64,000 nucleotides of DNA from an uncultured Flavobacteriaceae bacterium (lineage in GTDB: Bacteria > Bacteroidota > Bacteroidia > Flavobacteriales > Flavobacteriaceae): positions 534,178 to 598,177 of the forward strand of contig CALSTP010000001.1 of the NCBI GenBank assembly GCA_943789305.1. Reading direction: 5' to 3'. The translations under genes were made by a program, and so were the position numbers. This document shows positions 5,859 through 51,373 of this stretch, in pieces (the first letter of the stretch is position 1; the number at the start of each line of letters is the position of its first letter). The notes below the pieces were generated by a model that was not told the DNA's origin, did no database searches, and saw only the letters and a program-made list of their open reading frames with translations.

Positions 5859-6737
5859 GTGATATTAAAGGTTAAATATTATCAAATTTCTATTTGGGTT
5901 ACAATTGTGTTAATTCTTTTAGGACATCTTGTAAACACTAGTTTTCAAGACTTGTTAGGGTTGGTTTTAATTTTTTCTGCGGGGCTTATTCATGGAGCAA
6001 ATGACATTCAGTTGTTACAAAAAAAATACAGCAATACAGATTTCATTTTTTTAATTGCGCTCTACCTTGCTGTAGTTTTGTTTGGAGGTTTTTTATTTTT
6101 TTATTCTCCTAAGTTTGGACTTTTCTTTTTTATTCTATTTAGTGGTTTTCATTTTGGAGAACAGCATTGGTCTTCTTTTTTAAATCAAAAGGTTGCTCCT
6201 GTTTTTTTAAATAAGATAGCTTATGTATTTTATGGGCTTTTAATTTTTGCACTCTTATTTATTTTCCAGGTTGAAGAAGTCAAAACCTTAATCAAACAAA
6301 TAAGCGAACTTAGCATTACTGTAAATTTCTTTTATTGGGCTGCTTCGATTTTGGGAATTGGTTTTAGTGGGCTAGCATTTTTTTTACCGATTGACCTCAA
6401 GTTGTTCGCAAAAGAGATCTTGGCTTTGGTTCTTTTATGCATCCTATTTGCTAATACCAGTTTACTTTTATCTTTTTCAGCTTATTTTGTTTTTTGGCAC
6501 AGCATTCCTTCGATTCAAGACCAAATACTTTATTTAAACGATGAAATTTCGTTGGCTGCACTCAAAAAGTATTTAAAGTCATCTTTTCTTTATTGGATAA
6601 TGTCCTTGTTTGGTTTGTTTGTTTTTTATTTTTACTTTAATGTTGATTCCGATTATTTTATTCCACTATTTTTCACTTTTCTAGCGGCAATTACTTTTCC
6701 ACATACCTTAGTCATAGGAATGATTGATTACGAATAA
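5859..6737 (+). CDS. blh: Brp/Blh family beta-carotene 15,15'-dioxygenase (retinal synthesis)
   Basis: Multi-TM protein with AGLIHGANDIQLL and FHFGEQHW motifs; adjacent to and divergent from proteorhodopsin. Confidence 0.9.
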   Translation: MILKVKYYQISIWVTIVLILLGHLVNTSFQDLLGLVLIFSAGLIHGANDIQLLQKKYSNTDFIFLIALYLAVVLFGGFLFFYSPKFGLFFFILFSGFHFGEQHWSSFLNQKVAPVFLNKIAYVFYGLLIFALLFIFQVEEVKTLIKQISELSITVNFFYWAASILGIGFSGLAFFLPIDLKLFAKEILALVLLCILFANTSLLLSFSAYFVFWHSIPSIQDQILYLNDEISLAALKKYLKSSFLYWIMSLFGLFVFYFYFNVDSDYFIPLFFTFLAAITFPHTLVIGMIDYE

Positions 6738-13492: not shown

Positions 13493-14488
13493 TTGAATTT
13501 CGGATTATTTTTAGCGCATCGAATGCGCAACCAAAATATTGATAAAAGTAGTGCATCGAGTCGTATTATAAAAATCGCGATTTCGGCTATCGCTATTGGT
13601 CTAATTATGATGTTGATTGCAGTTGCAACAAGTTTAGGCCTTCAGCAAGAAATTAAAAAAAAAATAGTTGCTTTTAGCGGAGAACTTTTCATTGCACCTT
13701 TTGAAAATAATAATTCAAAAGTATCAACAAAACCCATTCAATTTTCTGAATTAAATCAAGAGAGCTGGAACACTTCAACCGATATTGAACATTATCAAAG
13801 CGTAGCTAATAAAGCGGCATTGGTAAAATCAAAAACAGATTTCGAGGGTTTGGTGGTTAAAGGAGTTGGTGCTGACTATTGGTGGGAAAACTTAAATTCA
13901 TATTTAGTATCAGGTGTTTATCCAGATACGGGATCAAAGTTGAATAATGAAGTATTGTTGTCTCAAACTTTAGCTAATCGACTTCGTGTAGGTATAGGTG
14001 ATCGAATAACAGCATATTTTCAAAACGAATCTAATACGGGAACCCCAAATACCCGCTACTTTAAGGTTGTTGGGATTTATGAAACTGGATTTCCAGATTT
14101 TGACACCACTTATGTTTTTGCAGATATTCGCCATATTCAAAGAATTAATAAATGGAATTCTGATGAGGTGGGAGGATTCGAAGTATTTTTAAAACAAAAT
14201 GTAGATTTAGATCAAAAAAACACTCAGATCTACAATCAAATCCCACCTTATATCGATGCAGTCACTGTTGATAAGATGTTTCCAAGTTTGTTTGAATGGA
14301 TTTCTTTGTTTGATTTTAATGTGTTGATTATTCTAACTTTAATGATTTTGGTGGGAACTTTGAATATGGCAACTGCTCTTTTGGTTTTAATTTTAGAACG
14401 CTCAAAAATGATTGGTTTATTGAAGGCGATGGGAGCAAAAAACAGTATGATTCAAAGTGTGTTTTTGTGGAATGCATTATGCACATAA
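13493..14488 (+). pseudogene. FtsX/LolE-like ABC transporter permease, N-terminal part of a frameshifted gene
   Basis: MacB-like periplasmic domain and TM helices; ends abruptly at KNSMIQSVFLWNALCT* while homology continues in another frame at 14467. Confidence 0.75.
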
Positions 14489-14730
14489 TTTTTAAAGGGT
14501 TGTTGATAGGAAATGTGATGGCTTTAATTTTTCTTTTTGGTCAACAAAAATTCAATTTTATTCAATTAGACCCCGCAACTTATTATGTTTCTGATGTGCC
14601 AATTCTATTGTCTGTCACTAACTTTTTGGCCTTGAATTTTGGTGTGGTTTTTATTTGCACTTTAGTTTTATATATTCCTTCTTTTATTGTTACCAAAATA
14701 GACCCCTCAAAGGTTATGCGTATACAATAA
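14467..14730 (+). pseudogene. FtsX/LolE-like permease, C-terminal part after frameshift
   Basis: ...MHIIFKGLLIGNVMALIF...VLYIPSFIVTKIDPSKVMRIQ is a typical C-terminus of LolE-like permeases. Confidence 0.75.
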
Positions 14731-15877: not shown

Positions 15878-18800
15878 TTGATTAATAAAACGCTGACATA
15901 CTATAAACACCTATTTTTAGGTGTTATTTTGATGCTCTCATTTGGGAATGCTGTTGGTCAGGTTGATTTGGAAATAAATAGAAGTCAAGTAATTATTCCT
16001 GCTCAAGGAACACCTCCTCAAATTTGTACCACCGAGACCTCTCCACTTCAATTTAGAATTGATAATATAGGTAATCTGGATTACACTGTAACTAACGCAA
16101 GTAGTATAACAGTTACCTTAACCCTTTCGGGAGGTAATACTTTTTCTCCCTCAGGATTAACAACCAAGGTCCATTCGTATAGTTCAGCTCCCTCAGTTAA
16201 AGGTGGTAGTCCACCAAATACTTTAGAGGCCACTGGAGGCTTTGCTACGTTCGATTGGCCTGCTTCTAAACCAATTATTTTTTCAAATTCTATTCAGGCG
16301 AATATTAATATTGAAATTGCAACAGGAGTTGCCTCTGATACAACACCAGCTAACAACACAACAGATTATGTAGTCGATATAGTTCCAAATCCAATTACTC
16401 CTGTTTTATCAGCTGGACCATACGGAGATGGCACTATTAATCTTTGTCAAGGAGCTCTTGTAACATTTACGGTTTTGCCAAACACCGTTGGACTTCGACA
16501 TGAATTTGATATAGCTGGAGTTATTGTTCAAAACCTTGTTAATGTAAACACTTATGCAACTTCAGCACTTGTTACCAATCAACTAATTAATGTTACCACA
16601 TACAATACTAGCAACTGTGGTGTGACTGGAAATCCAATAAGGGCTTTAGTCCATCCTGTTCCTGTGGGAACTTTGATTTCCGATAAAAGTAATGATGTTG
16701 TTTGTCCGGGAGAAGATGTATTATTTACAGCATTGGCGACTGGAGCTGCAGCGGTAAGTCCCCGGTATGAGTTTTTCTTGGATAATATTTCAGTACAATC
16801 AAGTTCTACTCAAGCGACATTTTCTTTGGGTACTGCTTCGATAACTATCGATGGTCACGTTGTTAGGGTAAGAACATGGAACAACACAGGTGCTGGTGGT
16901 CTTTGTTATGATGATGACTCAATAACACTTCGTTTAAATACCTTTTCAAGTACCAACCAAATCACCAATACAACAACAAGTGTTTGTGCTGGAGTTGATC
17001 CAGATCCATTCTCAAGTCAATCAAGTTTTTCTTCTGATCTTGGAGGGGATATTGTTCATGTTTGGGAAGAGGATATAAATGGAGATGGAAATTTCTTACC
17101 AATCACTCCCGCAGCTAACGGACTAACATACGATCCACCGGTACTCACGAGAACAACTGCATATAGACGTCTGAGTTATCCGAGATTTAATACCATTACT
17201 TGTAATTCTTCGATTGCATCCGCAACTTCAAATGTTGTTACGATAACATTCAATCCAACTTCTGTTGCAAGTTTAAGGTCAAACGCTACAACTTCCAGCA
17301 ATACTCTATGCGCAGGAGATTCATTGATTTTGAATGCTTCTTTATCTTCAGGTGCCCAAAGCTATATCTTTTACAAAAATAATCAGCCACTACCTCCTTC
17401 GGCTCCACAATCTTTAGCTACATATACTCTGATAAGTGGCGCATTTGATGATAACGACGTAATTAAAGTAAGGGCATATTCTGGTACAGGAACTGACAGT
17501 TGTTTTTCAGAGGCTCAGTTTGTAATTCGAGTAAATTCTTTTTCTGGGGGGGCGACTCCAGTTCCAGGTAATACAATTGGAAACTCATTTAGTGTATGTA
17601 AAAATGAAACTCCTTTAATCTCATTTACAAGTATATCAACACCAACTCTTCCAAATTCAATACTCACAGATGGAGCAACTATTACCTATCAATGGCAAAG
17701 TAGATCTGGTACAAATACTTTTTTGCCAATTGCATTTCCTGCAGGAAGAGGGGAATTGTATACACCTTCCTCAGTATCAACTGACACTGATTTTAGGCGT
17801 GTGGCAATAAGTACTTTCAATGGTAAAACTTGTAGTCTAATAAGTAACACAGTCCGACTTTCAGTTTCTGCTGACCCTGTAGCTTCTTTGAATGGAACTA
17901 ATACAGCATGTTTGGGCGAAGCTGTCCTTTTTACTGCTTCTGGAGGAGTACGTTATGAGTTTTTTAATGGAGGAACTAGCCTAGGAGCAAGTAGTACGGT
18001 TTCTACTATTTCGAGAACAGATTTACTTGATCTCAATTCAATAACAGTTGAAGTTACTGATGGTAATGGTTGTTCCGTGATTTCTGATCCAATTATAATG
18101 AATATTACTTCGCCACCTTCTCCTTCAATTTCTTCGGGTAGAAGTGATAATAGAGCATGTTCTGGTGATTACCCTGTATTTACTGCTGGACCTCCAGTTG
18201 CGGGTTACACATATGAATTTTTTGTAAACAATACTTTGCAAACAACTGGTGTGTCGTCAAACACTTTTGATTCTAACCTAGCTTCAACAACTGTCAATTT
18301 TTTAAACGTTAATACAATAAGAGTTCGTGTTACTAACTCTGGTTGTTCAAGTCAAACAAGTATTCCTTTCTACGTAGATGGATTAACTGGTGCTAATTCA
18401 ATATCAGCAACTCAAACAATATGTGAAGGGGCAACACCCAACACATTAATTGGTTTATCAAATCCTTTAGCAAATTCTGCAGGAGCAACAGTTAGTTATC
18501 AATGGGAAGAAAAATTAATTGGTGGTAATTTTACACCTATTTTTGCCGCTACTGGTCCAGATTTTTCTCCAGGCTCATTAACTGTATCAAGAGTATATCG
18601 TCGATTGGTATACTCGAATTTCAATGGCACCATATGCCCATCTTCTAAAGACTTAGCTGCTTCAAATTCTGTTACAATTACAGTTGATAGTAATTCAGCA
18701 CCTGTAATAAACTTTACCTCAGGACTTCAGTCTGATGTTTTGTGTGCAGGAGATTCTGTTACTTTTGATGCCTCTGGAACTACAGGCGCATCTACTTATG

Positions 18801-21800
18801 AATTTTATGTACAAAATATTAGAGTAAGGGCCGCGTTAAACTCCAATACTTTTACACCAATTCTGGGCTCTCTAAATGACAATGATATTGTAAGAGTAAG
18901 AGCCAATTCTGCCTTAGGAACAAGTTGTTTTTCAGAGCAGAGTATTACAATTAGGGTTAATGAACAAGCAAATGCAAATACAATTACAGGTTCTCAAACA
19001 GTTTGTTTTAATGGTCCGGTTTCTACATTAAATGGTTCTACTGTGACAGGAACACCAACGATAACATATCAATGGCAGAGTAGAACTAACACAGACACTT
19101 TTAGTGATATTTTTGGAGCAGTAGGAGTTAATTATACTCCCTCAGGTTTATCCTCAACAACAGCTTTTCGTCGTAATGTTTTATCCACATTAAGTTCAAA
19201 GACTTGTGTAATTTCAAGCGGTGTAGTTACTGTTACAGTTAGTCCAGGGGCCACCCCTGTTGCTAGACTTGTAACTACAAGCAATATCGGATGTGGAGGT
19301 TCTACCCCTCCCATGGCATCAAGGAGTGACTTTATTTTTGATGCAAGTTCAAGTACAAACGACCTAAGTTATGAGTTTTTTGTGGGTGGTGCCTCTCAAG
19401 GTCCAGCATCTAGTGTTTCAACTATTTCCCTTACACTAACTGATAGTCAAACAGTTCGTGTAGATGTTTACCCGTTTGCTAATGGTGCTGGGTGTCCAAA
19501 TAGTACTTCTATCACTGTTAGAGTTAATTCAATTATAGGAGATAATATTATTGGTGGAACAGATTTAATATGTGAGAATGATGACGCTTCAGCACTAAAC
19601 TCTGTGAGTACACCTACATCCACCACTGGTACTTTAACTTATCAATGGCAAGTAAGGTCTGGTACAAATACTTTTACAAATATTAGCCCTGGTGGAAATG
19701 GAATAGATTACGATCCTAGTAACTTATCAACCACAACTTTCTACAGAAGACTTGCCGTAAGTACAATTGGTGGATTGGCTTGTTCAGTTCCCAGTAATGT
19801 TGTAACCATAACCGTAGATTCTTCTCCAATTATTACAGGAGTTCTAACATCAGATGCCCAAACTATTTGTATTGGAAATACTCCTAATACTCAAACAGTT
19901 TCTTTCACCGTATCAGCAGCAGCATCTAGTATTGTTTTTTATATTAACAATAGTGCTGTTCAAACAAGTACTTCGAGAACTTACACCGCTTCACAATCAA
20001 TTTTTTCAGAAGGTGATGTTGTGACAACCAGACTTATAAACAGTGCAGGATGTTTTAGCGAGCAAAATTTAATTATCAATGTGAATAACATAGCTCCGGG
20101 AAGTATTAGTGGTTCACAAGCTGTTTGTGCTGGTTCGACTCCTATACCATTTACATCAGTTAGTTCTGGCGTAATTAATGGAGTAACTGTTGTTTCTCCT
20201 GGCACGGGTAGTTATCAATGGCAAACTTCTACAGACACTTTTAATTGGATTGACATACGATTTGCCACCTCCGATACATACTCACCTGCAGCTGCTCCAC
20301 CAGCCACAATACACTACAGACGATTAACGATTAATACCCTTAATGGTTTTGAATGTAAAATTCCATCTAACAGTATAACAGTTAGTGTGGACGCACTACC
20401 TAATCCTGGCTTGACTGCAAATGGTGGTGCGTTTACTGCACCTGCAACGATAACCTCTTGTGCTAGTAATACCATAAGTTTTATTGCCTCTGGTGGTACT
20501 GAATATCAATTTTTTGTAAATAATATATCGGCTCAATCTCGAGATACTTCCTCTACCTTTTTAGCTTTAAATCCCTCTGATAGTGATGAAGTATTTGTTC
20601 GAGTGTACAAAACTGCTTTAGCAAGTTCTTGTTTTGCGGATTCAGGAATAATTAAAGTTGATCTTGAAGCACCACCTGTTGCGAGTATTTCCCCATCCGT
20701 TTCTAATCGCGTCTTTTGTTCAGGTACTGATGTATTATTTACAGCCGATTCGGGAGGAGTAGCATCAGCAACATATGAGTTTAAAGTTAACAATACCATT
20801 ATACAAACCTTTAGTACAACTAATACTTTCAATTCTGGGGATTACCCATCTCTTACTCTAGTTGGGAATCCTTTTATTGAAGTTACCGTAAGATCTCCTT
20901 CTGGATGTTCTAATATTGCTAGTGTAACTTTAATTGAAAATGCGATATCTTCAGTTGGAACCCTAACTTCATCAACCGCAACAGTCTGCCTTAACCAAAT
21001 TCCAGATCCTATTGTTGGCTCTACTGCCGTTGCCTCTGGAAGCATTACCTATGGCTGGCAGTCCTCGTCTGATGGAATTTTATATAGCCTAATTGGTGGA
21101 GCAACATCTACAACTTACACGCCAACTACAGGTTTAATATCGACTACTTTTTATCAAAGAGTAACCTACAGTGAAATTAATTCTGTTACCTGTTCATCAA
21201 CTTCAACACCTTTTAGAGTTTCAATTTCACCTGCTCCGATCCCCAACTTGATAGCTAGCCCCGGAGCTCTAACTGCCCCCGCAACATTAACCTTATGTGA
21301 TAATACAGGTGTTGGAATTTTTAATGCATCTGGAGGAGCAAGTTATGAATTTAGAGATGAGAACGGAATTGTATTACAAGCCAGATCTACAACCAGTACC
21401 TTTTCAGCAACCACTTCATCAACTTTATTGGATAATAGTCAGGTAATAGTTCGTGTATTTTCTAATGTGACAGGTGGATGTTTTGAAGATTCAAACCCCA
21501 TTATAATTCAAGTTTCTCCTCAACCTACAGTAAGTCTTAACACAATTGGAGGACTAACTACCTTCTGTACAGGAGATGTTGTAACAATGACAGCAACTTC
21601 TACTATTGCGGGTAGTAATTTTGAATTTAGAATAAACGGAGCTGAGATACAAAACGGAGCCTCCAACACCTATAGTCGAACGATAGATGCTTCTATACCA
21701 CCTATATTAGCAACTGGAAATTATATTGTAACAGTTGCAGTAACGAGTCCAGGTGGATGTACTGTAACAGATACTTTAACTTTATTTGAGAACAACATAC

Positions 21801-22081
21801 CAATACCTGCAGGATTAACTACAGCGAGTGCAACGATTTGTTCAGGACAAGTTCCACAGCCAATAGTAGGAGCAGCAGCAGTAGCTTCAGGAACAACAGT
21901 TGATTATGTTTGGATGCGTTCTACAGATGGTGGAGTTACTTATAATACTATAGGAGGCGCAGCCAATGCAGCCACTTATACTCCGACCTCAGCAATTGTC
22001 ACAACAACTTTTTATCGTCGAGATATAGTAAGTACGCTTGAACAGTTTCATGTACACTTGAAGGTGGACCAATCCAAGTAG
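15878..22081 (+). CDS. Giant SprB-like Ig-repeat surface adhesin, N-terminal part (frameshifted at 22039/22040; continues in the next frame to 38175)
   Basis: TTG start, signal peptide MINKTLTYYKHLFLGVILMLSFGNAVGQ, tandem Ig-like modules (YQWQ..., ASGG..YEFFVNG...); the last ~14 codons are out of frame relative to three internal repeat copies. Confidence 0.88.
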   Translation: MINKTLTYYKHLFLGVILMLSFGNAVGQVDLEINRSQVIIPAQGTPPQICTTETSPLQFRIDNIGNLDYTVTNASSITVTLTLSGGNTFSPSGLTTKVHSYSSAPSVKGGSPPNTLEATGGFATFDWPASKPIIFSNSIQANINIEIATGVASDTTPANNTTDYVVDIVPNPITPVLSAGPYGDGTINLCQGALVTFTVLPNTVGLRHEFDIAGVIVQNLVNVNTYATSALVTNQLINVTTYNTSNCGVTGNPIRALVHPVPVGTLISDKSNDVVCPGEDVLFTALATGAAAVSPRYEFFLDNISVQSSSTQATFSLGTASITIDGHVVRVRTWNNTGAGGLCYDDDSITLRLNTFSSTNQITNTTTSVCAGVDPDPFSSQSSFSSDLGGDIVHVWEEDINGDGNFLPITPAANGLTYDPPVLTRTTAYRRLSYPRFNTITCNSSIASATSNVVTITFNPTSVASLRSNATTSSNTLCAGDSLILNASLSSGAQSYIFYKNNQPLPPSAPQSLATYTLISGAFDDNDVIKVRAYSGTGTDSCFSEAQFVIRVNSFSGGATPVPGNTIGNSFSVCKNETPLISFTSISTPTLPNSILTDGATITYQWQSRSGTNTFLPIAFPAGRGELYTPSSVSTDTDFRRVAISTFNGKTCSLISNTVRLSVSADPVASLNGTNTACLGEAVLFTASGGVRYEFFNGGTSLGASSTVSTISRTDLLDLNSITVEVTDGNGCSVISDPIIMNITSPPSPSISSGRSDNRACSGDYPVFTAGPPVAGYTYEFFVNNTLQTTGVSSNTFDSNLASTTVNFLNVNTIRVRVTNSGCSSQTSIPFYVDGLTGANSISATQTICEGATPNTLIGLSNPLANSAGATVSYQWEEKLIGGNFTPIFAATGPDFSPGSLTVSRVYRRLVYSNFNGTICPSSKDLAASNSVTITVDSNSAPVINFTSGLQSDVLCAGDSVTFDASGTTGASTYEFYVQNIRVRAALNSNTFTPILGSLNDNDIVRVRANSALGTSCFSEQSITIRVNEQANANTITGSQTVCFNGPVSTLNGSTVTGTPTITYQWQSRTNTDTFSDIFGAVGVNYTPSGLSSTTAFRRNVLSTLSSKTCVISSGVVTVTVSPGATPVARLVTTSNIGCGGSTPPMASRSDFIFDASSSTNDLSYEFFVGGASQGPASSVSTISLTLTDSQTVRVDVYPFANGAGCPNSTSITVRVNSIIGDNIIGGTDLICENDDASALNSVSTPTSTTGTLTYQWQVRSGTNTFTNISPGGNGIDYDPSNLSTTTFYRRLAVSTIGGLACSVPSNVVTITVDSSPIITGVLTSDAQTICIGNTPNTQTVSFTVSAAASSIVFYINNSAVQTSTSRTYTASQSIFSEGDVVTTRLINSAGCFSEQNLIINVNNIAPGSISGSQAVCAGSTPIPFTSVSSGVINGVTVVSPGTGSYQWQTSTDTFNWIDIRFATSDTYSPAAAPPATIHYRRLTINTLNGFECKIPSNSITVSVDALPNPGLTANGGAFTAPATITSCASNTISFIASGGTEYQFFVNNISAQSRDTSSTFLALNPSDSDEVFVRVYKTALASSCFADSGIIKVDLEAPPVASISPSVSNRVFCSGTDVLFTADSGGVASATYEFKVNNTIIQTFSTTNTFNSGDYPSLTLVGNPFIEVTVRSPSGCSNIASVTLIENAISSVGTLTSSTATVCLNQIPDPIVGSTAVASGSITYGWQSSSDGILYSLIGGATSTTYTPTTGLISTTFYQRVTYSEINSVTCSSTSTPFRVSISPAPIPNLIASPGALTAPATLTLCDNTGVGIFNASGGASYEFRDENGIVLQARSTTSTFSATTSSTLLDNSQVIVRVFSNVTGGCFEDSNPIIIQVSPQPTVSLNTIGGLTTFCTGDVVTMTATSTIAGSNFEFRINGAEIQNGASNTYSRTIDASIPPILATGNYIVTVAVTSPGGCTVTDTLTLFENNIPIPAGLTTASATICSGQVPQPIVGAAAVASGTTVDYVWMRSTDGGVTYNTIGGAANAATYTPTSAIVTTTFYRRDIVSTLEQFHVHLKVDQSK

Positions 22082-25051
22082 CAGTTGCAGCCCCTCCAAC
22101 ACCTGGACTAACAGGAACAGCTATATCAGGAACAAGGACAGCATCTGACACTTTAGTTATTTGTCCAGGAGAGTTAGTTAATTTCCAAGCAACAGGAGGA
22201 GCTACTTATAGGTTCATTGGTCAAGGAGGAGTTACTTTACAAAGCAGATCAGCATCGAGTACTTTCAGTACAAATACATTAAACAACTTAAATACTGTTC
22301 AGGTAGAGGTATTCAATGCAGGAGGGTGTTCAAGTTTTTCAGACCTAATTACCATAAATATTGGACCAGGAAGTGGAGCACCAAATTTACAGACTACTAA
22401 TAGCACACTTAACAACACCTTCTGTACAGGAGATGTTGTAACAATGACAGCAACTTCTACCATCGCGGGTAGTAATTTTGAATTTAGAATAAACGGAGCT
22501 GAGATACAAAACGGTCTCTCCAACACCTATAGTCGAACGATAGACGCCTCTATACCACCTATATTACCAACTGGAAACTATATTGTAACAGTTGCAGTAA
22601 CGAGTCCAGGAGGATGTACTGTAACAGATACTTTAACTTTATTTGAGAACAACATACCAATACCTGCAGGATTAACTACAGCGAGTGCAACGATTTGTTC
22701 AGGACAAGTTCCACAGCCAATAGTAGGAGCAGCAGCAGTAGCTTCAGGAACAACAGTTGATTATGTTTGGATGCGTTCTACAGATGGTGGAGTTACTTAT
22801 AATACTATAGGAGGCGCAGCCAATGCAGCCACTTATACTCCGACCTCAGCAATTGTCACAACAACTTTTTATCGTCGAGATATAGTAAGTACACTTAGAA
22901 CAGTTTCATGTACACTTGAAGGTGGACCAATCCAAGTAGCAGTTGCAGCCCCTCCAACACCTGGACTAACAGGAACAGCTATATCAGGAACAAGGACAGC
23001 ATCTGACACTTTAGTTATTTGTCCAGGAGAGTTAGTTAATTTCCAAGCAACAGGAGGAGCTACTTATAGGTTCATTGGTCAAGGAGGAGTTACTTTACAA
23101 AGCAGATCAGCATCGAGTACTTTCAGTACAAATACATTAAACAACTTAAATACTGTTCAGGTAGAGGTATTCAATGCAGGAGGGTGTTCAAGTTTTTCAG
23201 ACCTAATTACCATAAATATTGGACCAGGAAGTGGAGCACCAAATTTACAGACTACTAATAGCACACTTAACAACACCTTCTGTACAGGAGATGTTGTAAC
23301 AATGACAGCAACTTCTACCATCGCGGGTAGTAATTTTGAATTTAGAATAAACGGAGCTGAGATACAAAACGGTCTCTCCAACACCTATAGTCGAACGATA
23401 GACGCCTCTATACCACCTATATTACCAACTGGAAACTATATTGTAACAGTTGCAGTAACGAGTCCAGGAGGATGTACTGTAACAGATACTTTAACTTTAT
23501 TTGAGAACAACATACCAATACCTGCAGGATTAACTACAGCGAGTGCAACGATTTGTTCAGGACAAGTTCCACAGCCAATAGTAGGAGCAGCAGCAGTAGC
23601 TTCAGGAACAACAGTTGATTATGTTTGGATGCGTTCTACAGATGGTGGAGTTACTTATAATACTATAGGAGGCGCAGCCAATGCAGCCACTTATACTCCG
23701 ACCTCAGCAATTGTCACAACAACTTTTTATCGTCGAGATATAGTAAGTACACTTAGAACAGTTTCATGTACACTTGAAGGTGGACCAATCCAAGTAGCAG
23801 TTGCAGCCCCTCCAACACCTGGACTAACAGGAACAGCTATATCAGGAACAAGGACAGCATCTGACACTTTAGTTATTTGTCCAGGAGAGTTAGTTAATTT
23901 CCAAGCAACAGGAGGAGCTACTTATAGGTTCATTGGTCAAGGAGGAGTTACTTTACAAAGCAGATCAGCATCGAGTACTTTCAGTACAAATACATTAAAC
24001 AACTTAAATACTGTTCAGGTAGAGGTATTCAATGCAGGAGGGTGTTCAAGTTTTTCAGACCTAATTACCATAAATATTGGACCAGGAAGTGGAGCACCAA
24101 ATTTACAGACTACTAATAGCACACTTAACAACACCTTCTGTACAGGAGATGTTGTAACAATGACAGCAACTTCTACTATTGCGGGTAGTAATTTTGAATT
24201 TAGAATAAACGGAGCTGAGATACAAAACGGTCTCTCCAACACCTATAGTCGAACGATAGACGCCTCTATACCACCTATATTACCAACTGGAAACTATATT
24301 GTAACAGTTGCAGTAACGAGTCCAGGAGGATGTACTGTAACAGATACTTTAACTTTATTTGAGAACAACATACCAATACCTGCAGGATTAACTACAGCGA
24401 GTGCAACGATTTGTTCAGGACAAGTTCCACAGCCAATAGTAGGAGCAGCAGCAGTAGCTTCAGGAACAACAGTTGATTATGTTTGGATGCGTTCTACAGA
24501 TGGTGGAGTTACTTATAATACTATAGGAGGCGCAGCCAATGCAGCCACTTATACTCCGACCTCAGCAATTGTCACAACAACTTTTTATCGTCGAGATATA
24601 GTAAGTACACTTAGAACAGTTTCATGTACACTTGAAGGTGGACCAATCCAAGTAGCAGTTGCAGCCCCTCCAACACCTGGACTAACAGGAACAGCTATAT
24701 CAGGAACAAGGACAGCATCTGACACTTTAGTTATTTGTCCAGGAGAGTTAGTTAATTTCCAAGCAACAGGAGGAGCTACTTATAGGTTCATTGGTCAAGG
24801 AGGAGTTACTTTACAAAGCAGATCAGCATCGAGTACTTTCAGTACAAATACATTAAACAACTTAAATACTGTTCAGGTAGAGGTATTCAATGCAGGAGGG
24901 TGTTCAAGTTTTTCAGACCTAATTACCATAAATATTGGACCAGGAAGTGGAGCACCAAATTTACAGACTACTGCTAGTACACTTAATAATACCTTCTGTA
25001 CAGGAGATGTTGTAACAATGACAGCAACTTCTACTATTGCGGGTAGTAATT
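21561..25051 (+). repeat. Tandem 858-bp (286-codon) repeat, ~4 copies: 21561-22417 (857 bp), 22418-23275, 23276-24133, 24134-24991, plus partial 24992-25051
   Basis: Anchor ccttctgtacaggagatg occurs at 21561, 22418, 23276, 24134 and 24992; copies 2-4 look almost identical at nucleotide level. Confidence 0.97.
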
Positions 25052-28000
25052 TTAGGTTTTCTGTTAATGGATCAATTCAACAAAATTTCTCAGTTGCAAA
25101 TACTTTTATTCCAATCCTTAACACTCCTGATGCAGTAACAGGTAATTATGTTGTGCTTGTAGAAGTGAATAGTCCAGGGGGATGTACTGTAACAGATACT
25201 TTAACTTTATTTGAAAATGTAATATCCTCAGTCGGAACTCTAACTACGGCAAGTTCAACGATTTGTTCAGGAGAGGTTCCACAACCAATAATAGGAACTT
25301 CAACAGTGGCCTCAGGTTCAATTAGTTATCAATGGGAGGAATCTTTTGATAATATAACGTATACTCCTATATTGGGTGCAGCAAATGCAGCTACTTATAC
25401 CCCTACAGTAGCACCATTATTATCAGCAACAAGAATTTTCTATAAAAGAATTACTACAAGTATACGAAGGGGTACTGCATGTACTGTCGAAACAGCACCC
25501 GTGTTAATAACAATTTCTTCACCTACACCTAGTTTAATAGCTGACCCTGGAAATATATCTGCTACTGGAACATTTACTATGTGTGAAGGAAGTGAAGCCA
25601 GATTCACAGCTGCAGGAGGATTGAGTTATGAATTTTATGTTAATGGTATAAAAAGAGGTGCAAGATCAAATCAATCAACTTTCACAATTTCAAGTCTTAC
25701 TAATTCACCATCACTTAGAAATAATGAAAGAGTCCGAGTACTTGTTTTTGATCAACTCACTGGGGCAGGTGGTTGTTCGGCTTTTTCTGATGAAATTATT
25801 GTTAGAACAATTGCTGTTCCAACGGTTAATTTAACACGAAGCGATACAACAGGATCAATTTTTTGTACAGGAGATGAACCATCTTTTACAGCAAGTAGTA
25901 GCTTATCATCAGCAACATATGAGTTTTACATCGGACCAACACCTTGGCAAAATTCTACATCCACGGTATTCACACCTATACAGTCCCTCTATGTTCCTTT
26001 TTTAACAGACGGAGATGTGATTAGTGTTGTTGTAAATGCTTCTGGAGTATCTGGTTGTAGTGCGACGGATTCAATTACAATGGTTGAAAATGCTTTTACA
26101 GTATCAGGACTTATTACTAACGCAAGCCCAATGATATGTAGTGGTGGTACTCCAAGTGTATTTACTAATGTTGCTTCAGCTTCAGGAACAGGTAGCATAA
26201 CTTATCGATGGCAAAGTGGATTATCAACAGCAACATTTATTGACATAGTTCCTTTTGTGACAACAGCAACATTTACACCAACCACGAGTTTAACAACACA
26301 TACTCTTTTCAGAAGAAGAGCGATAAGTACAATAGGTGTTGATGAATGTGAAAGTTTCAGTAATACAATAGAAATTAGAATTTCACCACCCTTAGATGGA
26401 GGTCTAATAAGCCCTGCTTTAATGGAAATTTGCACTGGGGATTCACCAGGTGCTTTATCTGTTACAGGTGGTTCAATAGGTCCCTTAATGACATATGAAT
26501 GGCAGATCTCATCCGATGGATTGATATTTACTGCTATTACTAGTGCAACTGGTCAAACATATACCCCATCTTCATTAAATACGACCACTTTTTATAAACG
26601 CATAGTTAATCTTAATGGAGGCGGTCCACCAGCAAGTTGTACTGCAGAAAGTTCAATTATACGAATTAACATCGTAGATCTTAACCCCGGATCGTTAGAT
26701 GAAAGAGTAGAACAAGCATATTGTTTTGGAACTATGCCACCTACTTTGACTAGTTCAATAACAGGTGGAGTTCAACAAGATGCATTTAGCAGTGTAGGAA
26801 CCATTTCTTATCAATGGCAGGAGTCTCTAAATGACGGAACATGGACTAATATTCCCTCAGCAACTCAGAATTATTATAATCCTCCCTCTTTAATACAGAC
26901 TACTTTTTTTCGTCGTATTGCAATCAGCACAACAATAAGTAATGTATGCACAGATTTTACTGAATCTTTAAGAATTGAGATTATTGATGATCTTGATGCG
27001 GGAACAATTTTACCGGCAGATCAAAATATTTGTTCAATTCTTACAGCGGCTGATTTACCTAGATCACTTGTTTTAACATCACCAGAAACCCAAACCACTT
27101 CGGTTACATATCAATGGCAACAATCATTGGATAAATCTGTATGGTTTGATATCCCCGGTCAGCAAAATCTGAATCTAAACTTTAGCTTAGGTTTAGATGG
27201 AGTAGCTGGAACTCCTGATGATGACTCCTGGTTACCATCATCTACATCAACTTCAACTTATTATCGTGTTGTAACAACCTATGTTGGAAATCCTAAACCC
27301 TTCGCCCAAGAACAGGTTAGGATTTTGTTAACGGATCAACCAAGGGTTATGGCAGTTGGAGAATATATGATCTCTGTTAATGGTGATAATCATGCTATTA
27401 ACACCACGCTAACGAGTACTTTAGATCAAATAGGTTCTGATTTAGCAGCTAAAATAACCTCGGATGATCCTATTGTTAATGCAGCTTACAACTCAACTAC
27501 TAATATTATCACTCTTCAGCCAATTATCCCAGGTACTTATAATGTTGCCTCTTCAATTTTGTTAACAGACGATACAATTGCCCTAAGTTTTCCTGATAAC
27601 CCACCTATATTTATGACAATATTGGTGTCTGGAAATACAGGAACTCGAACACCAAATGCAGGTTTAGATTCTTGCCAAATCTACTCAAGTATTGCTGAAA
27701 TTAGTTCAGAACCGCAACCTGAATTTATTTTGGTGAGTGGAATAGTTTCTCCACAACAAGTTTGTCGAGGAGACCTTATTATTCCTATTCAATATACATA
27801 TACAAGTAATGTAGATGAAATACAAATCAGAAATCTCGACCCTGGATTAATTCCAACCATATCAGGAGCTGGAACCGTTGTTGGTCCTTTTGATGTTGGA
27901 GGTCTAGGAATAGCTGGATGGTACAGAATAACTAATTCAGCTTCAAGAACATTCTCCATCACAGGTTCTGTGACTAATTCATCAAACTTTAGCATGGTAA

Positions 28001-31000
28001 CTATTTTAGATCCATTAAGTCAATGTAATCCAATTACTGAGACATACGTGATTCAAGTAACACCTAATGCAGTTCAACCAAATTTCATCAGAAAGGGTCA
28101 GAATTTACCAGGATATGAAGTTTTATCATCCCAGATGAGTTCTATTGCTTCAATAACAGCTATTACACCTGTTCGTTGGTATAATAATACTGTTTGTCAA
28201 GACAGACTTCCAGCACCAACAACAGAGTGGACAGATTTTTACGCCTGTTATTCCGACAACACATTTAATCAACTATCCAATTCGTACGAGTGGGAAGTGT
28301 CACCCCCTGAGGCTGGAAATATGACCAATAATAATTTTCAAGAAACCACAATTCAACTTAATACGTTGGCAGCTCCCGCACTAGGTGAAAATTATACTGT
28401 ATCCATTACAACTGTAGCTTCAGGAACCACAGCATATACAACCACCTCAACATTAGCAATTCAAACTACTGACGAAATAGGAATTGATTTAGCAAGTAAA
28501 ATTTCCCTTGATTCAGCAGTAGATGCTATATATAATAATGTTATTGATCAAATTATTATAGAAGCAGCAACACCTAACTTATCTTTTACCACAACAGTTT
28601 CCCCGCTTGCAATTGGTCAATCTACTCAATTTAGTATACCAAGTATTAGACAAATTATTAGAAGTGGAACGATGCAATGGAATCCTTCTTTTACAGGATC
28701 TTCTACTATCAGAGTTCGTTCAATTGGTTGTGGTAGTAATGTGTCTTCATGGACCTCAGTAGTAATTGATGTAATTCCAGAAACCGTTCCAATTAATCCA
28801 GCTTCAGATCTTTATCCACCTGTAGTTATTGACGCAGGTATTTGTAGTGGAGCAACTACAGGAATTGTACCTTTATGTCAGGTAGATGCCTTTACTTTAC
28901 CTACGCAGTTTTTTACTGCTAGTGATAATGCAGCTAATGTTAACGATTACGGTTCTCTTGAATGGAGAATGGAGAATATTGCTCCTGGTTCATTAACTGT
29001 AGCTACTCCAGGTACGATTGATCAAGCAACTGGAATAATAACTTGGAATATTGGATGGTGGGGAACTTTTGATCTTCAAGTGCGCCCTGTTGATTGTGAT
29101 GGAGGCTTTGGAGTCTGGTCAACATCAACCATCAGTATTGGTCCAACCAATGGACCTGTTACGGATGTTACTCCTATATCAGCTTTACCAGAATGTCCAA
29201 TTCCCGATAGTGGATTCTCTACTACATTGAGATCCAGTCAGGAAGTAAATTGGTATGTAAATAGTCGTCTTGGGCTAGTAAGCTCAACTACATTTATCAA
29301 TACGGTGACTTTTCAATTGACTCCTCTACCGAATAACGACTTGTTCTTGGACTTTGAACCTGGATTTTCGGGGAATATAATCATTACTGCTGAGCCTGCT
29401 CTTTGTCCAGGATCAACAGTAAATTACGTAATAAATATTCCAGATCCACCTACAATTGTTTTAACATCTGGTTTCAATTCTAACCTTTTAATAGGTCCAG
29501 ATTCAATTTGCAGAAATACAGCTATCAATACAATCACTTATCAGATAGAAGGAGCTGCAGACGCAGTAACTGTTACAGGTCTTCCTACTGGAGTTATCCC
29601 AGTTTTAGATATTACTCCACAGTCTACTTCATTGAATTTATCAAATACAGGTACAGCTTTTAGTGCTGGACAAATTTATTCGATTCAAATCAATAATAAT
29701 ACTTACAACTTTGTTACTACAGGACCAGGAAATGACATTGATACTGTTGGTGAAGGATTACGAGATGATATCAATTTAAGAACTACAAATTTTGTAGCAA
29801 CGTATGCCTCCCCTTTATTGTCTATAGAGCCCAGTGGGACTGGTAAAAGAGGTGACTCTTTTATTATAGCGCCATCAACACCAGTAGGAAATTCCGTTGA
29901 TATTGATCCGCCTTTGACTACTCCATTACAAAAAATATTAACCATTTCAGGAACACCATTAAATAGTGTTCCACCAGGTCAATATCCCTATATCATAACA
30001 ACACTAGCTCCCGCTGCTAATTGTGCAGTTGTTAGTGCCACTGGTATTATTGAAATTGAAGAATCTGCTTCAATTACAATAGTTAATGGAATTGCAAATA
30101 ATACAGGTGCAAATTCAATATGTAACGGTGCATCCTATACCCCACCAGCATCTTTATTGACTCTTGATATTATCAATGCATTTAACTTAAGAGTAGATCC
30201 TCTTACTCCACTGCCTAATGGACTTGCATTGTCATTATCAGCTAGTGGTACAGCAAACCAGTTTGAAATAACGGGGCAAATTAGTGAGTCCGTCTTTGTT
30301 CCGACAACTTTTGTTGTTAATCTCGTCACTACAGGTGCAAACTGTGAGGATGCAGTTTTACAAATTTCAATCGAAGTTGAACCTAATCCAACTATAGACC
30401 CTGCAGTTGGAGCCAATCTTGATCCATTTGTATGTTCATCAGAGCCATTAGTCCCAATTCGATTTGAAGTATTTAATCCTGCATTTGGATTAGGCGAAAC
30501 AGTATCTAGCACATTCCCTCCAGGTGTTGACGGGAGACTTTACCAACAAATTCAGGTATCTCAATTCACAGTTGACTTTTTACTTGGAGCTGGAGATACA
30601 ACAGCTGTAAGTGACACTTTTGTCTTTAACATTAACAATATCCCTTACACATACGCAACACCCAATACATCAACAAATATTCAATTGGCAGCTGAAATTA
30701 ACACGTTTTTAACTGCACAATTACCGGCTACTCAATTTACGGTACTTTACACTGCTGGAACAAATGTAATTCAGATTCAACATGTAAATGCGGGAATAGC
30801 ATTTAATGTAATATCATCGGATTCTGCTACTTTCTTGGATATAAGCGAAACTCAAATTATTACTCCACCATCTTATTATGAGATTTCGGGTACACCTTCG
30901 GTTACCCTTGGTGCTCCTACACCATATGTATACGAATTAACAACCTCCGGGCCCAATTGTACGGGTAGTACTTCTGTGAGTGGAACAATAACCGTACAAC

Positions 31001-34000
31001 CCAGCACTTCTGCAAGTTATCTATCTGGTGTTCTAAATCAAGTTATTTGTGATAACGAAACCATGACCGATATCGTTTATTCAACGGTAGGGGCAGTAGC
31101 AATAGCAATTGTTACACCAACAACTCCATCTTGGATAGATGTTGATTTTGATCCAATAACACAGCAGATAACAATTTCAACTCCGGCAGCTCCAAATCAA
31201 AATGTTACTACAACTACGGTTTATAATTATCAAATTAATTTACAAGGAAGCTTGTTTGGTTGTAACACTGTTCCATCTCCAATATCAGGTACAGTTACCA
31301 TATCACCATTAGATCAAATTTCACATATCATAACCTCTGGTGCAGAAAATCAATCGATTTGTGTGGGTGGTAATCCTGCTATACCTTTTGCAATTGATCC
31401 TATCGAATATCAACTATCAGGAGGAGCAACGGGAGCTACAGTTACTGGACTTCCGCCAGGAATTACTCCAACCTTCACAGCCTTAAATAGACTTATCCTT
31501 TCTGGAACAGCAACGGCAATCCCCTCACCGACCTTTACATACAACTATCAAATAATAACAACCCCTGCAGGTTGCGTATCGGCGACTGCGTCAGGTTCCA
31601 TAACTGTATTCTCACAACCAGAATTAACATTAGTAACCACAGCAACTACTGCAAATCAAGTTGGTGCAAATGCAATATGTGACGCTCAGCCAATAGAAAC
31701 CATAATTTACGAGCACAGTACAACTACTCCTGTCACAACTCAAGTGAATTTCACCTGGGTCGGTTCAAATACACTCTTTGGATTTGGAGTAACTGCTTTA
31801 TCATCTGGAACAAACCAATTTGTGATTTCTGGAACACCAACGACCAACGTGACAGAAACAACTGTATACAATTATCAAATTGAAACAGTGGGAAGTAATT
31901 GTGAGCCTGAGGTTGTTTTGACGGGAAGTATTCAGATAAATCCAAACCAAACCATTGACCTTATTTCACCTGTCAATTCCGATAATCAAACGGTTTGTGT
32001 AAACGATCAAGATAATCCAGCAACTGCAAATACATCAAGTTTTGTTTCTATAGAGTATCAATTGGTTGGTGGAGCAACTAATTACAATATTATAGGATTG
32101 CCACCCGGTTTAACACACAACAGAACAATTTCAAATACAGTTTTAATCGATGGATTTATCGATTCTTCAGCAACCACAATAGCTTCGCCAACTGTAATTT
32201 ATAATTATATAATTACAACTACCGGAACATGTTCAGATACTCAAGCTTTAGGTGTGATAGAAGTTCACTCTTTACCAACTTTGAGTTTAACAAGTTCGGT
32301 AACCTCAGCAGATCAAACTGGAATCAATGCGATATGTGATGGTACTCCAATGGAAACTATTATTTATGAAATGGGTGGTGGGGCAACACTAATGGACTTC
32401 ACATGGGTAGGTTCAAATACGCTGTCATTTGCTGGTTCAGGATTTGTTCAAACCAATACAGGAACCCAAATTATTCTTTCTGGAACACCAACGACCAATG
32501 TAACTCAAACTACTTACTACAACTACCAAGTTGAAACTCTTGGAAGTAATTGTATTCCTGAAATTGTGTTGACAGGAAGTATTCAAATAAATCCAAATCA
32601 AACGATAACCCTTGTGTCATCGCCAACATCAGACAATCAAGTGGTTTGTGTCAGAGACAATAATAATCCATTGGAACCAGAGACTTCTAATTTTGTTCCA
32701 ATAGTATACGAATTAGGAGGAGGAGCTACAGGAGCAATTGTAACAGGCCTTCCAGATGGAATTTCACCATCGACAACTGCTACAGCTATTATTATTAATG
32801 GCCAGCCATCGTCTTTAGCCACATCACTAGTTTCTCCTACAATTATTTACAACTATACGGTTACTACATTTGGTGGCTGTACTACTTCCACAATTAATGG
32901 TTCTATAGAAGTTCAATCTCTTCCAACCTTAACCCTAGTATCGACTGCAACAACTGCAAATCAGACAGGATTTGGAGGAGCAGTTTGTGTTAATCAAGAC
33001 ATAGTGCCAATTATCTATGAATATGGAGGAGGAGCTGAAGGGATAACCTTCAATTGGACTTCCCCTGCAAATGTTGCTCCTGTAACATCATTATCGCAGG
33101 TCTACTCAGGAACACAATTTATTATTTCTGGAAGACCAAGCCCGTCCGCTACTTTAACCACAACAACAATTTTTGAATATGAAATTGTAACACGTGATAG
33201 TAATTGTTTGCCTGAAATAACTCTTACCGGTAGAATTGAAGTTAAACCAGAGGATGCACTTGAATTAATCTCCGGAGTTGGATCAGATTTCCCAACAGTT
33301 TGTGTTGGAGGTCTTCCAACATCAGAGAGTCTTACCGATATTGTTTATGAATTGAAGAACGGAGCTGAGAGTGCCATAGTAACGGGCTTACCTCCTGGAA
33401 TATCTTACACGGTAACTACATCGAAAACGATTGTCATATCAGGAACAGCTCAGGCATCAGCATCACTATCCTCGACAACTCTAACTCCTTGGATTTATAC
33501 TGTAACTACAATTGGTTGTTCTCCAGTTGTTGCAAATGGAACCATAACAGTTACTCCTAAACCTGAATTAATTTTAATAGCTGGAACCGCAGTACAAACT
33601 CCTGTTTGTAATTTGACACCTATCATAGATGCACAATATATTTATAATCCTGCAGCAGGAGGACCACCAGTGGTAACCTGGCCAAATGGTCAACCTAACG
33701 GTGTAAATGTATCTTCTGGAGGATTTACAGATCGATTAACAATAGGAGGTATACCCTCGGTTGTAATTACCAGAACCACAATATATCCATATGAAGTTAC
33801 TTTTTCTGGTACTTGTTCTCCCTCTGTCGTCCTTCGAGGAAGTATAGGAGTTATTCCAACACCTGTGATCGATTCAAATTACATTCTTACAAATGATGTA
33901 ACTAATGTTAGCTGTTTTGATGCATCAGATGGATCAATTATAATTCCAGATGAAGCCTCACTTGGATTTAGTAATCGTATAACTGGTGGAATGTTGAGTA

Positions 34001-49925: not shown

Positions 49926-50393
49926 TTAAGGGATGTTTTTTTTATTTCTTGATCCATGAACCATTTTCCGATGAAATTTTTCTTCAGCAATATGAATTCT
50001 TAAAACTTGTTTAGCGGTTAATTTAGTTTCTAAAGTATCGTTAAATTTTTTATAGAGAACCTCTTTTTGGCTTTTAAAATAGTTAATGGAATCAATTACT
50101 TCAGAAGCTTCTGCTTCGGTGAGTTCATCAATTTTCTTGAAGGTGTTGTGGCGAATTCCCTTCATTTTTTTATAATACTTTTTTCGCATATCTATTTCAT
50201 ATTGATCAAAAGCACGCCAAACAAATGTTTCTTGCTCTGTGGTCAAGTCTAATTGTTCAAGGATAAAATTAATTTTCAACGATTTTAATCGTTCGTAGCT
50301 CATTTTTTTATTTTTATCCTGTCCCCATAAAGATGAACTGAGAATCAGAAATAATAAACAAAGGATTGAATTTTTAATCTTCATAGTCTTCAT
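49926..50393 (-). CDS. Exported hypothetical protein in ECF sigma cluster (ORF extends to 50435; MKTMKIKNS start more likely)
   Basis: Signal peptide ending LSSSLWGQ; helical ILEQLDLTTEQETFVWRAFDQYEIDMRKKYY... ; overlaps the upstream gene end. Confidence 0.7.
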   Translation of the reverse strand: MKTMKIKNSILCLLFLILSSSLWGQDKNKKMSYERLKSLKINFILEQLDLTTEQETFVWRAFDQYEIDMRKKYYKKMKGIRHNTFKKIDELTEAEASEVIDSINYFKSQKEVLYKKFNDTLETKLTAKQVLRIHIAEEKFHRKMVHGSRNKKNIP

Positions 50394-50850
50394 ATAATAA
50401 GTAAAAGTTTGGATCATAGGCTTGTTGTAATTCAAAAATTGTTTCCGCTTTCATATTTTCAAAAGCAATTGTTTCAAATTCAAAACTTTCTGAAATATTC
50501 AGATCAAACAATTCAAAGCTTGTTAAGGGACTTTGTTGCTCTTCGAAGTAACGATCTAAAGCTGCATCAGTATTCAATTCCGTAGAAGAATAGCTTATTG
50601 AGAAAAACAGAGTAAAACAGGCGGCAATTGCTACTGCGTATGGGATTATATGAATTATTTTTATTTTCGATTTTTCATATGGAATTCGAAGCAAACGCAT
50701 TTCTGAAGTTGCAAAATATTCCTTTGGAACTTCAAAATTAGATTTAACCTCCGAAATCAATTTCAGGTTTTCCTTCAATTCCTCTGTCCTCTGAAAGTAA
50801 TTTTCAGGAACTTTAAATCCATGTGGTACTTTATTGTCCTTCAAGTTCAT
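50374..50850 (-). CDS. Single-TM protein following the ECF sigma factor, candidate anti-sigma factor
   Basis: One TM segment (IIHIIPYAVAIAACFTLFFSISY); overlaps the sigma gene; repeated GFKVPENYFQ / NFEVPKEYFA motif. Confidence 0.65.
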   Translation of the reverse strand: MNLKDNKVPHGFKVPENYFQRTEELKENLKLISEVKSNFEVPKEYFATSEMRLLRIPYEKSKIKIIHIIPYAVAIAACFTLFFSISYSSTELNTDAALDRYFEEQQSPLTSFELFDLNISESFEFETIAFENMKAETIFELQQAYDPNFYLLYEDYED

Positions 50851-51373
50851 TTTTTATTTTTTTAACAGCGTGGTGATAGGAAGCTTTCAGACCGCCAACA
50901 CTAGTTTCAAGAATTTCTGATATTTCTTCATATTTCAGCTCTTCATAATATTTAAGGTTAAAAATCAAGCGCTGTTTTTGGGGAAGTTTGGTAATAGCTT
51001 GTTGAAGTTTTATGGCAATTTTATCCCCTTCAAAATACGCATCTGCATGGAGTTCGTTGATTTGATGCTCGTTGTATTCGTTAATTGAATACCCCATTTT
51101 TTTTGACTTCTCTTTTATAAAACTTAAAGATTCATTAGTCGCAATTCGATACATCCAACTAAAAAGCTTGCTTTCTCCTCTAAATTTTTTAATGTTCTTA
51201 AAAATCTTAACATAAGTGTTTTGAAGCACATCATCAGCATCTTCATGATCAAGTACAATTTTTCGAATATGCCAATACAAAGGTTGATGAAATTCTTTTA
51301 CCAAAGCCTTGAACCCTTCTTCTTTAGTTTTAGGGTTTTTTAGTGCATCTACTAAAAGAGAGTGATCTTCCAA
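50831..51373 (-). CDS. RNA polymerase sigma-70 family ECF sigma factor
   Basis: DHEDADDVLQNTYVKIFKNIKKFRGESKLFSWMYRIATNESLSFI; ITKLPQKQRLIFNLKYYEELKYEEISEILETSVGGLKASYHHAVKKIK. Confidence 0.93.
   Translation of the reverse strand: MEDHSLLVDALKNPKTKEEGFKALVKEFHQPLYWHIRKIVLDHEDADDVLQNTYVKIFKNIKKFRGESKLFSWMYRIATNESLSFIKEKSKKMGYSINEYNEHQINELHADAYFEGDKIAIKLQQAITKLPQKQRLIFNLKYYEELKYEEISEILETSVGGLKASYHHAVKKIKNELEGQ

What the first reader, a model, noticed from the sequence alone, without database searches (positions are those of the whole stretch)
15878..38175. One ~7,430-residue SprB-like adhesin gene hidden as two ORFs
The 2067-aa and 5243-aa ORFs are one gene. The span is 22298 nt; adding one base gives 22299 = 7433 codons exactly. 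The second frame is open from 22042 (TVSCTLEGG), directly after the divergence point. The product would have a signal peptide, Ig-like, PKD-like and SprB-type repeats, a PKD domain and a type-B T9SS C-terminal domain, and is followed with zero spacing by a PorP/SprF-family gene. By established knowledge (F. johnsoniae SprB, roughly 6,500 aa, with SprF) this resembles a gliding or surface adhesin. It sits next to a cysteine synthase gene rather than recognisable sprC/sprD genes, so it looks like a stand-alone giant adhesin/SprF pair.
Basis: partly seen in the sequence, partly recalled or inferred. Interest (0 to 1): 0.85.

Follow-up and report, generated by a model that had tools for sequence, protein, structure and literature searches.

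The report
Giant surface adhesin split by frameshift
A marine bacterium carries one enormous surface-protein gene (about 7,400 amino acids) that this assembly shows as two pieces because of a single-base frame break; intact copies exist in the same species and genus, and it is most likely a long sticky fibre of a known kind but probably not the gliding adhesin SprB.

Summary
ORF1 (15878-22081) and ORF2 (open from 22042 to 38175) are one gene broken by one frameshift at 22036-22041. The proof is external. Uninterrupted proteins of 6288, 6574 and 6579 aa (97-100% identical over the C-terminal 1,100 aa) exist elsewhere, and same-genus genomes hold single ORFs of 8173, 8372 and 6516 aa in the same gene order. 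6574 + 3x286 = 7432 aa, exactly the predicted length. The break lies at the first junction of a nearly identical 858-bp array. Another four-copy assembly is also broken there, but with a different start, so a consensus error is likelier than a real mutation. The product is a T9SS cargo: signal peptide, ~38 Ig-like domains, 14 PIG-like domains, weak SprB-type repeats, a PKD domain and a divergent type-B CTD, paired with its own PorP/SprF carrier. 'SprB-like adhesin' is fair as a class; SprB itself is not supported: the carrier lies outside the twin-cysteine (CxC) SprF clade and lacks those cysteines, and no sprC/sprD is adjacent. No carrier read in four genomes of the genus has the motif. Closest solved relatives are GhpA and RemA. 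New member of a known kind. Array copy number differs between assemblies (0, 1, 1, 4, 4).

The parts
15878..22039 (+). N-terminal part of the giant adhesin gene: TTG start, signal peptide (MINKTLTYYKHLFLGVILMLSFGNAVGQ), 12 IgA-type and 8 IgB-type Ig-like domains
   Evidence: ORF; colinear with intact P0003 residues 1-2054; domain HMMs
22036..22041 (+). site of the single-base frame break, at the first junction of the 858-nt array (copy spacing 857 instead of 858)
21560..25053 (+). tandem array of a 286-aa (858-nt) triple-Ig module; the first two full units are identical, the third differs by 2 nt; a 64-nt block recurs at 21559, 22416, 23274, 24132 and 24990
   Evidence: AF2 model pLDDT 83
22042..38172 (+). 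rest of the giant adhesin gene (open frame 5377 aa; first ATG at 22444): 10 IgA, 8 IgB and 14 PIG-like domains, weak SprB-type repeats near 33889 and 34522, PKD-like domain
37867..38172 (+). divergent type-B T9SS C-terminal domain
   Evidence: PF13585 E 0.007, below cut-off; hhalign to the genome's other type-B CTDs (five of six above the TIGR04131 cut-off) probability 95.2%, E 2.9e-8
38176..39192 (+). PorP/SprF-family carrier, 338 aa, zero spacing, no cysteine in the protein
   Evidence: PF11751 E 3e-20, TIGR03519 91 bits vs cut-off 90.55, tail

Best explanation
One gene encodes a giant, mostly Ig-like T9SS cargo of about 6.3-8.4 thousand residues in this marine flavobacterial genus. Steps inferred from known families: the Sec signal peptide exports it to the periplasm, the type-B CTD carries it through SprA, and the co-encoded PorP/SprF protein takes it from the translocon and stays bound, anchoring it as a fibre (rough estimate 250-300 nm) on the outer membrane. 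Because the carrier lacks the twin-cysteine tail used to couple SprF to the moving GldK track, I expect a mainly static adhesion fibre (cell-cell, particle or prey contact) rather than the SprB gliding adhesin. The frame break in this assembly is most likely a consensus error at the edge of an almost identical 858-bp array, so the protein is probably made in full.
For: Intact same-species versions; intact same-genus genes with conserved neighbours lolE-cysK-giant-sprF-M28 peptidase-acyl-CoA dehydrogenase; G006 frame open across the junction region at DNA level. Another four-copy assembly (P0001) is broken at the same place but starts differently. dN/dS of 0.12-0.23 downstream of the break. T9SS and gliding core: SprA, GldL, GldJ, GldG, GldK-like protein with both conserved cysteines. 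CTD by profile-profile match. Carrier family; carrier outside the CxC clade with 100/100 support and no CxC in its tail; no carrier read in G000, G009, G012 or G013 has CxC, while G019, G022, G023 and G024 do. Cognate-carrier and static/dynamic model: PMC12618676 and PMC12635249. Ig modules match GhpA (E 1.6e-25) and RemA (E 1.5e-14) by profile and GhpA by fold.
Against: F. johnsoniae static type-B pairs tend to sit with a PorE-like gene, and this pair does not, resembling the dynamic ones. Gliding-associated GldJ and GldG are kept. SprF without its cysteines still shows brief track contacts (PMC12635249). Both four-copy assemblies are broken at the same site, which a real lesion in that lineage would also give. 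Ligand unknown; adhesion itself is inferred.
Confidence: 0.68

Rival explanations
1. The gene is the SprB orthologue of this genus and drives gliding: the carrier moves on the GldJ/GldK track without the twin-cysteine link.
For: It is the only gene of the genome with any SprB-repeat signal; giant size; no PorE-like neighbour; GldJ, GldG and a GldK-like protein present.
Against: Carrier far from the CxC SprF clade (branch 3.1); no CxC tail; no sprC/sprD beside it; SprB repeats below cut-off. In F. johnsoniae either cysteine is essential for gliding (PMC12635249).
Confidence: 0.15
2. It is an ixotrophy-type grappling-hook filament, a relative of GhpA used to catch other cells.
For: Best solved relatives of the Ig modules by fold (E 1.6e-11, TM about 0.6) and by profile (8 stretches, E 1.6e-25) are GhpA; GhpA also ends in a type-B-like CTD (E 0.0017).
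Against: GhpA is one of few giant T9SS Ig proteins in the PDB and RemA also matches, so the match may only reflect shared Ig repeats. Single-sequence searches of the gene find no PDB relative. No T6SS sheath protein VipB in this genome or relatives, though a divergent Bacteroidota sheath could be missed.
Confidence: 0.1
3. The frame break is real: in this strain the gene is a recently broken pseudogene, or makes a 2067-aa protein without CTD that stays in the periplasm.
For: The break is not in a homopolymer and lies beside a second base difference; P0001 is also broken there.
Against: The two broken assemblies appear to differ at the site (P0001 DNA not seen); other alleles are intact; a second frame break in the window lies in the neighbouring lolE-like gene, as expected of an assembly with residual indels.
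Confidence: 0.17
4. Programmed ribosomal frameshifting joins the two ORFs.
For: A -1 shift would be the right direction (frames).
Against: No slippery heptamer before the stop; relatives and sister copies of the repeat need no shift.
Confidence: 0.02

Closest known systems
SprB/SprF of Flavobacterium johnsoniae (SprB 6497 aa, PMC9870892)
   Same: Giant T9SS cargo with type-B CTD, followed by a PorP/SprF carrier; host has the T9SS core
   Different: Carrier outside the CxC clade and without twin cysteines; no sprC/sprD neighbours; SprB repeats only weak; next to cysteine synthase
Static type-B substrate/carrier pairs such as Fjoh_3952/Fjoh_3951 (PMC12618676)
   Same: Type-B CTD protein with dedicated carrier, static anchoring proposed
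   Different: That pair sits with a PorE-like gene; this one does not; this protein is giant
GhpA grappling-hook protein of Aureispira (PDB 9flp and others, 5898 aa)
   Same: Giant T9SS-secreted Ig-repeat protein; module folds and profiles match; C-terminal domain similar
   Different: No shared architecture shown beyond Ig repeats and CTD; no T6SS sheath gene found; oligomer state unknown
Homologues in marine Flavobacteriaceae, e.g. Candidatus Arcticimaribacter protein P0024 (4392 aa)
   Same: 43% identical over the C-terminal 1100 aa; several homologues are named gliding motility-associated C-terminal domain proteins by their sources
   Different: Uncharacterised; shorter or partial

Membership tests
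Type-B T9SS substrate | Sec signal peptide | tested here: met
   Hydrophobic N-terminus MINKTLTYYKHLFLGVILMLSFGNAVGQ, read by eye from the sequence; no predictor run
Type-B T9SS substrate | Type-B CTD (PF13585/TIGR04131) | tested here: met
   Below cut-off alone (PF13585 E 0.007; TIGR04131 none); P0005 and P0010 carry precomputed PF13585; hhalign E 2.9e-8 to the genome's type-B CTDs
Type-B T9SS substrate | Cognate PorP/SprF carrier | tested here: met
   PF11751 E 3e-20, zero spacing, conserved in the genus and in G022; actual pairing not tested
Type-B T9SS substrate | Host T9SS | tested here: met
   SprA, GldL, GldJ hits over cut-off; a 464-aa GldK-like protein beside GldL
SprB gliding adhesin | SprB repeats (PF13573) above cut-off | tested here: not met
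   26.7 bits against cut-off 28; a distant homologue passes with 30.1 bits
SprB gliding adhesin | SprF with twin-cysteine C-tail, same clade as CxC carriers | tested here: not met
SprB gliding adhesin | sprC-sprD-sprB-sprF gene order | tested here: not met
   Upstream genes are lolE-like and cysteine synthase-like
SprB gliding adhesin | Helical movement and gliding phenotype | not testable with these tools
   Uncultured organism
GhpA grappling hook | Ig repeats homologous to GhpA | tested here: met
   also matched by RemA, so not specific
GhpA grappling hook | T6SS present for ixotrophic killing | tested here: not met
   No PF05943 match in 9 genomes; divergent sheaths may be missed
GhpA grappling hook | Heptameric hook | not testable with these tools
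   Needs structural work on the protein

The most novel reading that the evidence does not exclude
A giant outer-membrane fibre whose reach is tuned by recombination: the 286-aa triple-Ig module expands and contracts (0, 1, 4 copies seen) between 64-bp blocks, and frame breaks at the array edge switch the fibre off, so the adhesin is length- and phase-variable within one marine species, in a genus where no twin-cysteine carrier was found.
Probability: 0.13. Interest if true: 0.62.

Novelty: new member of a known kind. Interest (0 to 1): 0.4.

Why it matters
It corrects a mis-split giant gene (about 1.1% of this 2.08-Mb genome) and shows that 'SprB-like plus SprF' need not mean gliding. The twin-cysteine test published in 2025 can be read from sequence, and applied to this genus it finds no such carrier in four genomes, although track proteins are kept. 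That gives a testable prediction about which type-B adhesins move and which are static.

Tried and rejected
Programmed frameshifting: no slippery site. C-terminal structure model from two sequences: failed (mean pLDDT 31), not used. Single-protein PDB searches of the CTD region, the carrier and the giant: nothing significant. Several Pfam hits in the array (baeRF_family11, Wzt_C, Nis1, Fibulin_C, MiAMP1) fall on the repeats and were taken as chance. First reading of minus-strand carrier loci was in the wrong orientation and was redone. A literature search on repeat-length variation in flavobacterial adhesins found nothing on point.

Full report
OBSERVATION. The window is G000:C1:534178-598177 of a 2.08-Mb, two-contig genome; its named relatives are uncultured Flavobacteriales/Flavobacteriaceae MAGs, taken here as marine. 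ORF1 (15878-22081) and ORF2 (open 22042-38175) are in frames one base apart; the span is 22298 nt, one short of 7433 codons. The break lies at the first junction of an 858-nt tandem unit: copy starts are spaced 857, 858, 858 nt, the first two full units are identical and the third differs by two bases. Beside the missing base there is one further base difference. No slippery heptamer precedes the stop.

ONE GENE. A protein search found uninterrupted versions P0002 (6288 aa), P0003 (6574 aa) and P0004 (6579 aa), 100, 100 and 97% identical over the C-terminal 1,100 aa. P0003 is colinear without gaps with ORF1 residues 1-2054 (99.0%) and continues as ORF2. 6574 + 3x286 and 6288 + 4x286 both equal 7432. 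Same-genus genomes hold single ORFs of 8173 (G009), 8372 (G013) and 6516 aa (G012) with the same neighbours; G006 is open across the corresponding region; G005 is split into four ORFs. The frame after the break evolves under purifying selection (dN/dS 0.12-0.23 against G016 and G006).

REAL OR ERROR. P0001, with the same four copies and 3 differences in 5377 aa from ORF2, is also broken at this junction, but begins with two residues that the window DNA does not give. I infer a different base change there, though its DNA was not seen. Two disagreeing consensus calls at the edge of an almost identical array point to error. Comparison with G012 and G009 over the window finds one other clear frame break, in the lolE-like gene upstream. 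I put about 80% on an assembly error.

COPY NUMBER. P0002, P0003, P0004, P0001 and the window carry 0, 1, 1, 4 and 4 VSCTLEGG units (window by inspection, proteins). P0002 and P0003 are otherwise nearly identical in the parts compared (one difference each in the N-terminal 1,915 and C-terminal 4,200 residues), and the boundary of the missing 286 aa falls inside the repeated block TFCTGDVVTMTATSTIAGSNF, as expected of recombination between repeats. Short-read collapse of an array would look the same, so this remains open.

ANATOMY. Iterated HMMs find 22 IgA-type and 16 IgB-type Ig-like domains and 14 PIG-like domains, then weak SprB repeats, a PKD-like domain and a CTD that fails TIGR04131 and scores E 0.007 with PF13585 but matches the genome's other type-B CTDs by profile comparison (95.2%, E 2.9e-8). 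The module model (pLDDT 83) is nearly all beta and best matches GhpA in the PDB; by profile it matches GhpA (E 1.6e-25) and RemA (E 1.5e-14).

CARRIER AND GLIDING. G000 has 7 PorP/SprF genes and T9SS/gliding genes SprA, GldL, GldJ and GldG. A GldK-like protein has cysteines at positions matching the two conserved in F. johnsoniae. In F. johnsoniae a Cys-X-Cys motif in the SprF tail is disulfide-bonded to GldK and needed for gliding (PMC12635249). The window carrier has no cysteine at all. None of the carriers read in G000, G009, G012 and G013 has the motif (a fragmentary G013 match was not read), while carriers of G019, G022, G023 and G024 do, so the check can detect it. In the tree the carriers of the giant form one clade (100/100), far from the clade that holds all CxC carriers; the genus members inside that CxC-containing clade lack the cysteine tail. 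Some type-B substrates are static in F. johnsoniae (PMC12618676). Against a static reading, static pairs there tend to sit with a PorE-like gene, which is missing here although three other carrier loci of this genome have an OmpA-domain gene nearby.

CONCLUSION. A real, single, giant T9SS type-B adhesin gene with its own carrier; SprB-like in kind, not shown to be SprB, more likely static than gliding; the frame break is probably an assembly error.

Noticed in passing
13493-14730 (+): The lolE-like gene upstream is also frame-broken (331 aa; 411 aa intact in G009 and G013); G012 has a break in the same gene at another site.
   Followed up: partly
5859-6737 (+): Brp/Blh-family beta-carotene 15,15'-dioxygenase (TIGR03753 over cut-off), a retinal-synthesis gene typical of proteorhodopsin-bearing marine bacteria; among the less conserved genes of the window (55%).
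   Followed up: no
L086:3938-7509 (G000 C1, about 1691.9-1695.5 kb): A carrier that groups inside the clade containing the CxC SprF proteins but lacks the cysteine tail, paired with an 852-aa type-B protein; the same in G009 and G012.
   Followed up: partly
L046/L047 (G005:C2:124001-164000): The orthologous giant gene is split into four ORFs in G005, probably several assembly frame breaks.
   Followed up: no
L083:3-16320 (G000 C2): Another giant type-B protein of this genome appears as two overlapping ORFs (2287 aa, cut by the stretch, and 3182 aa), possibly another frame break.
   Followed up: no
L085:1-7153 (G000 C1): Two overlapping ORFs (1762 aa, cut by the stretch, and 658 aa) before a PorP/SprF gene, possibly another frame-broken type-B adhesin.
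   Followed up: no
49926-51373 (-): Three small overlapping ORFs (169, 158, 180 aa) are conserved as three separate genes in G012, so not a split gene; the middle one is fast-evolving (45%) and had no NCBIfam match at E 1e-10.
   Followed up: partly
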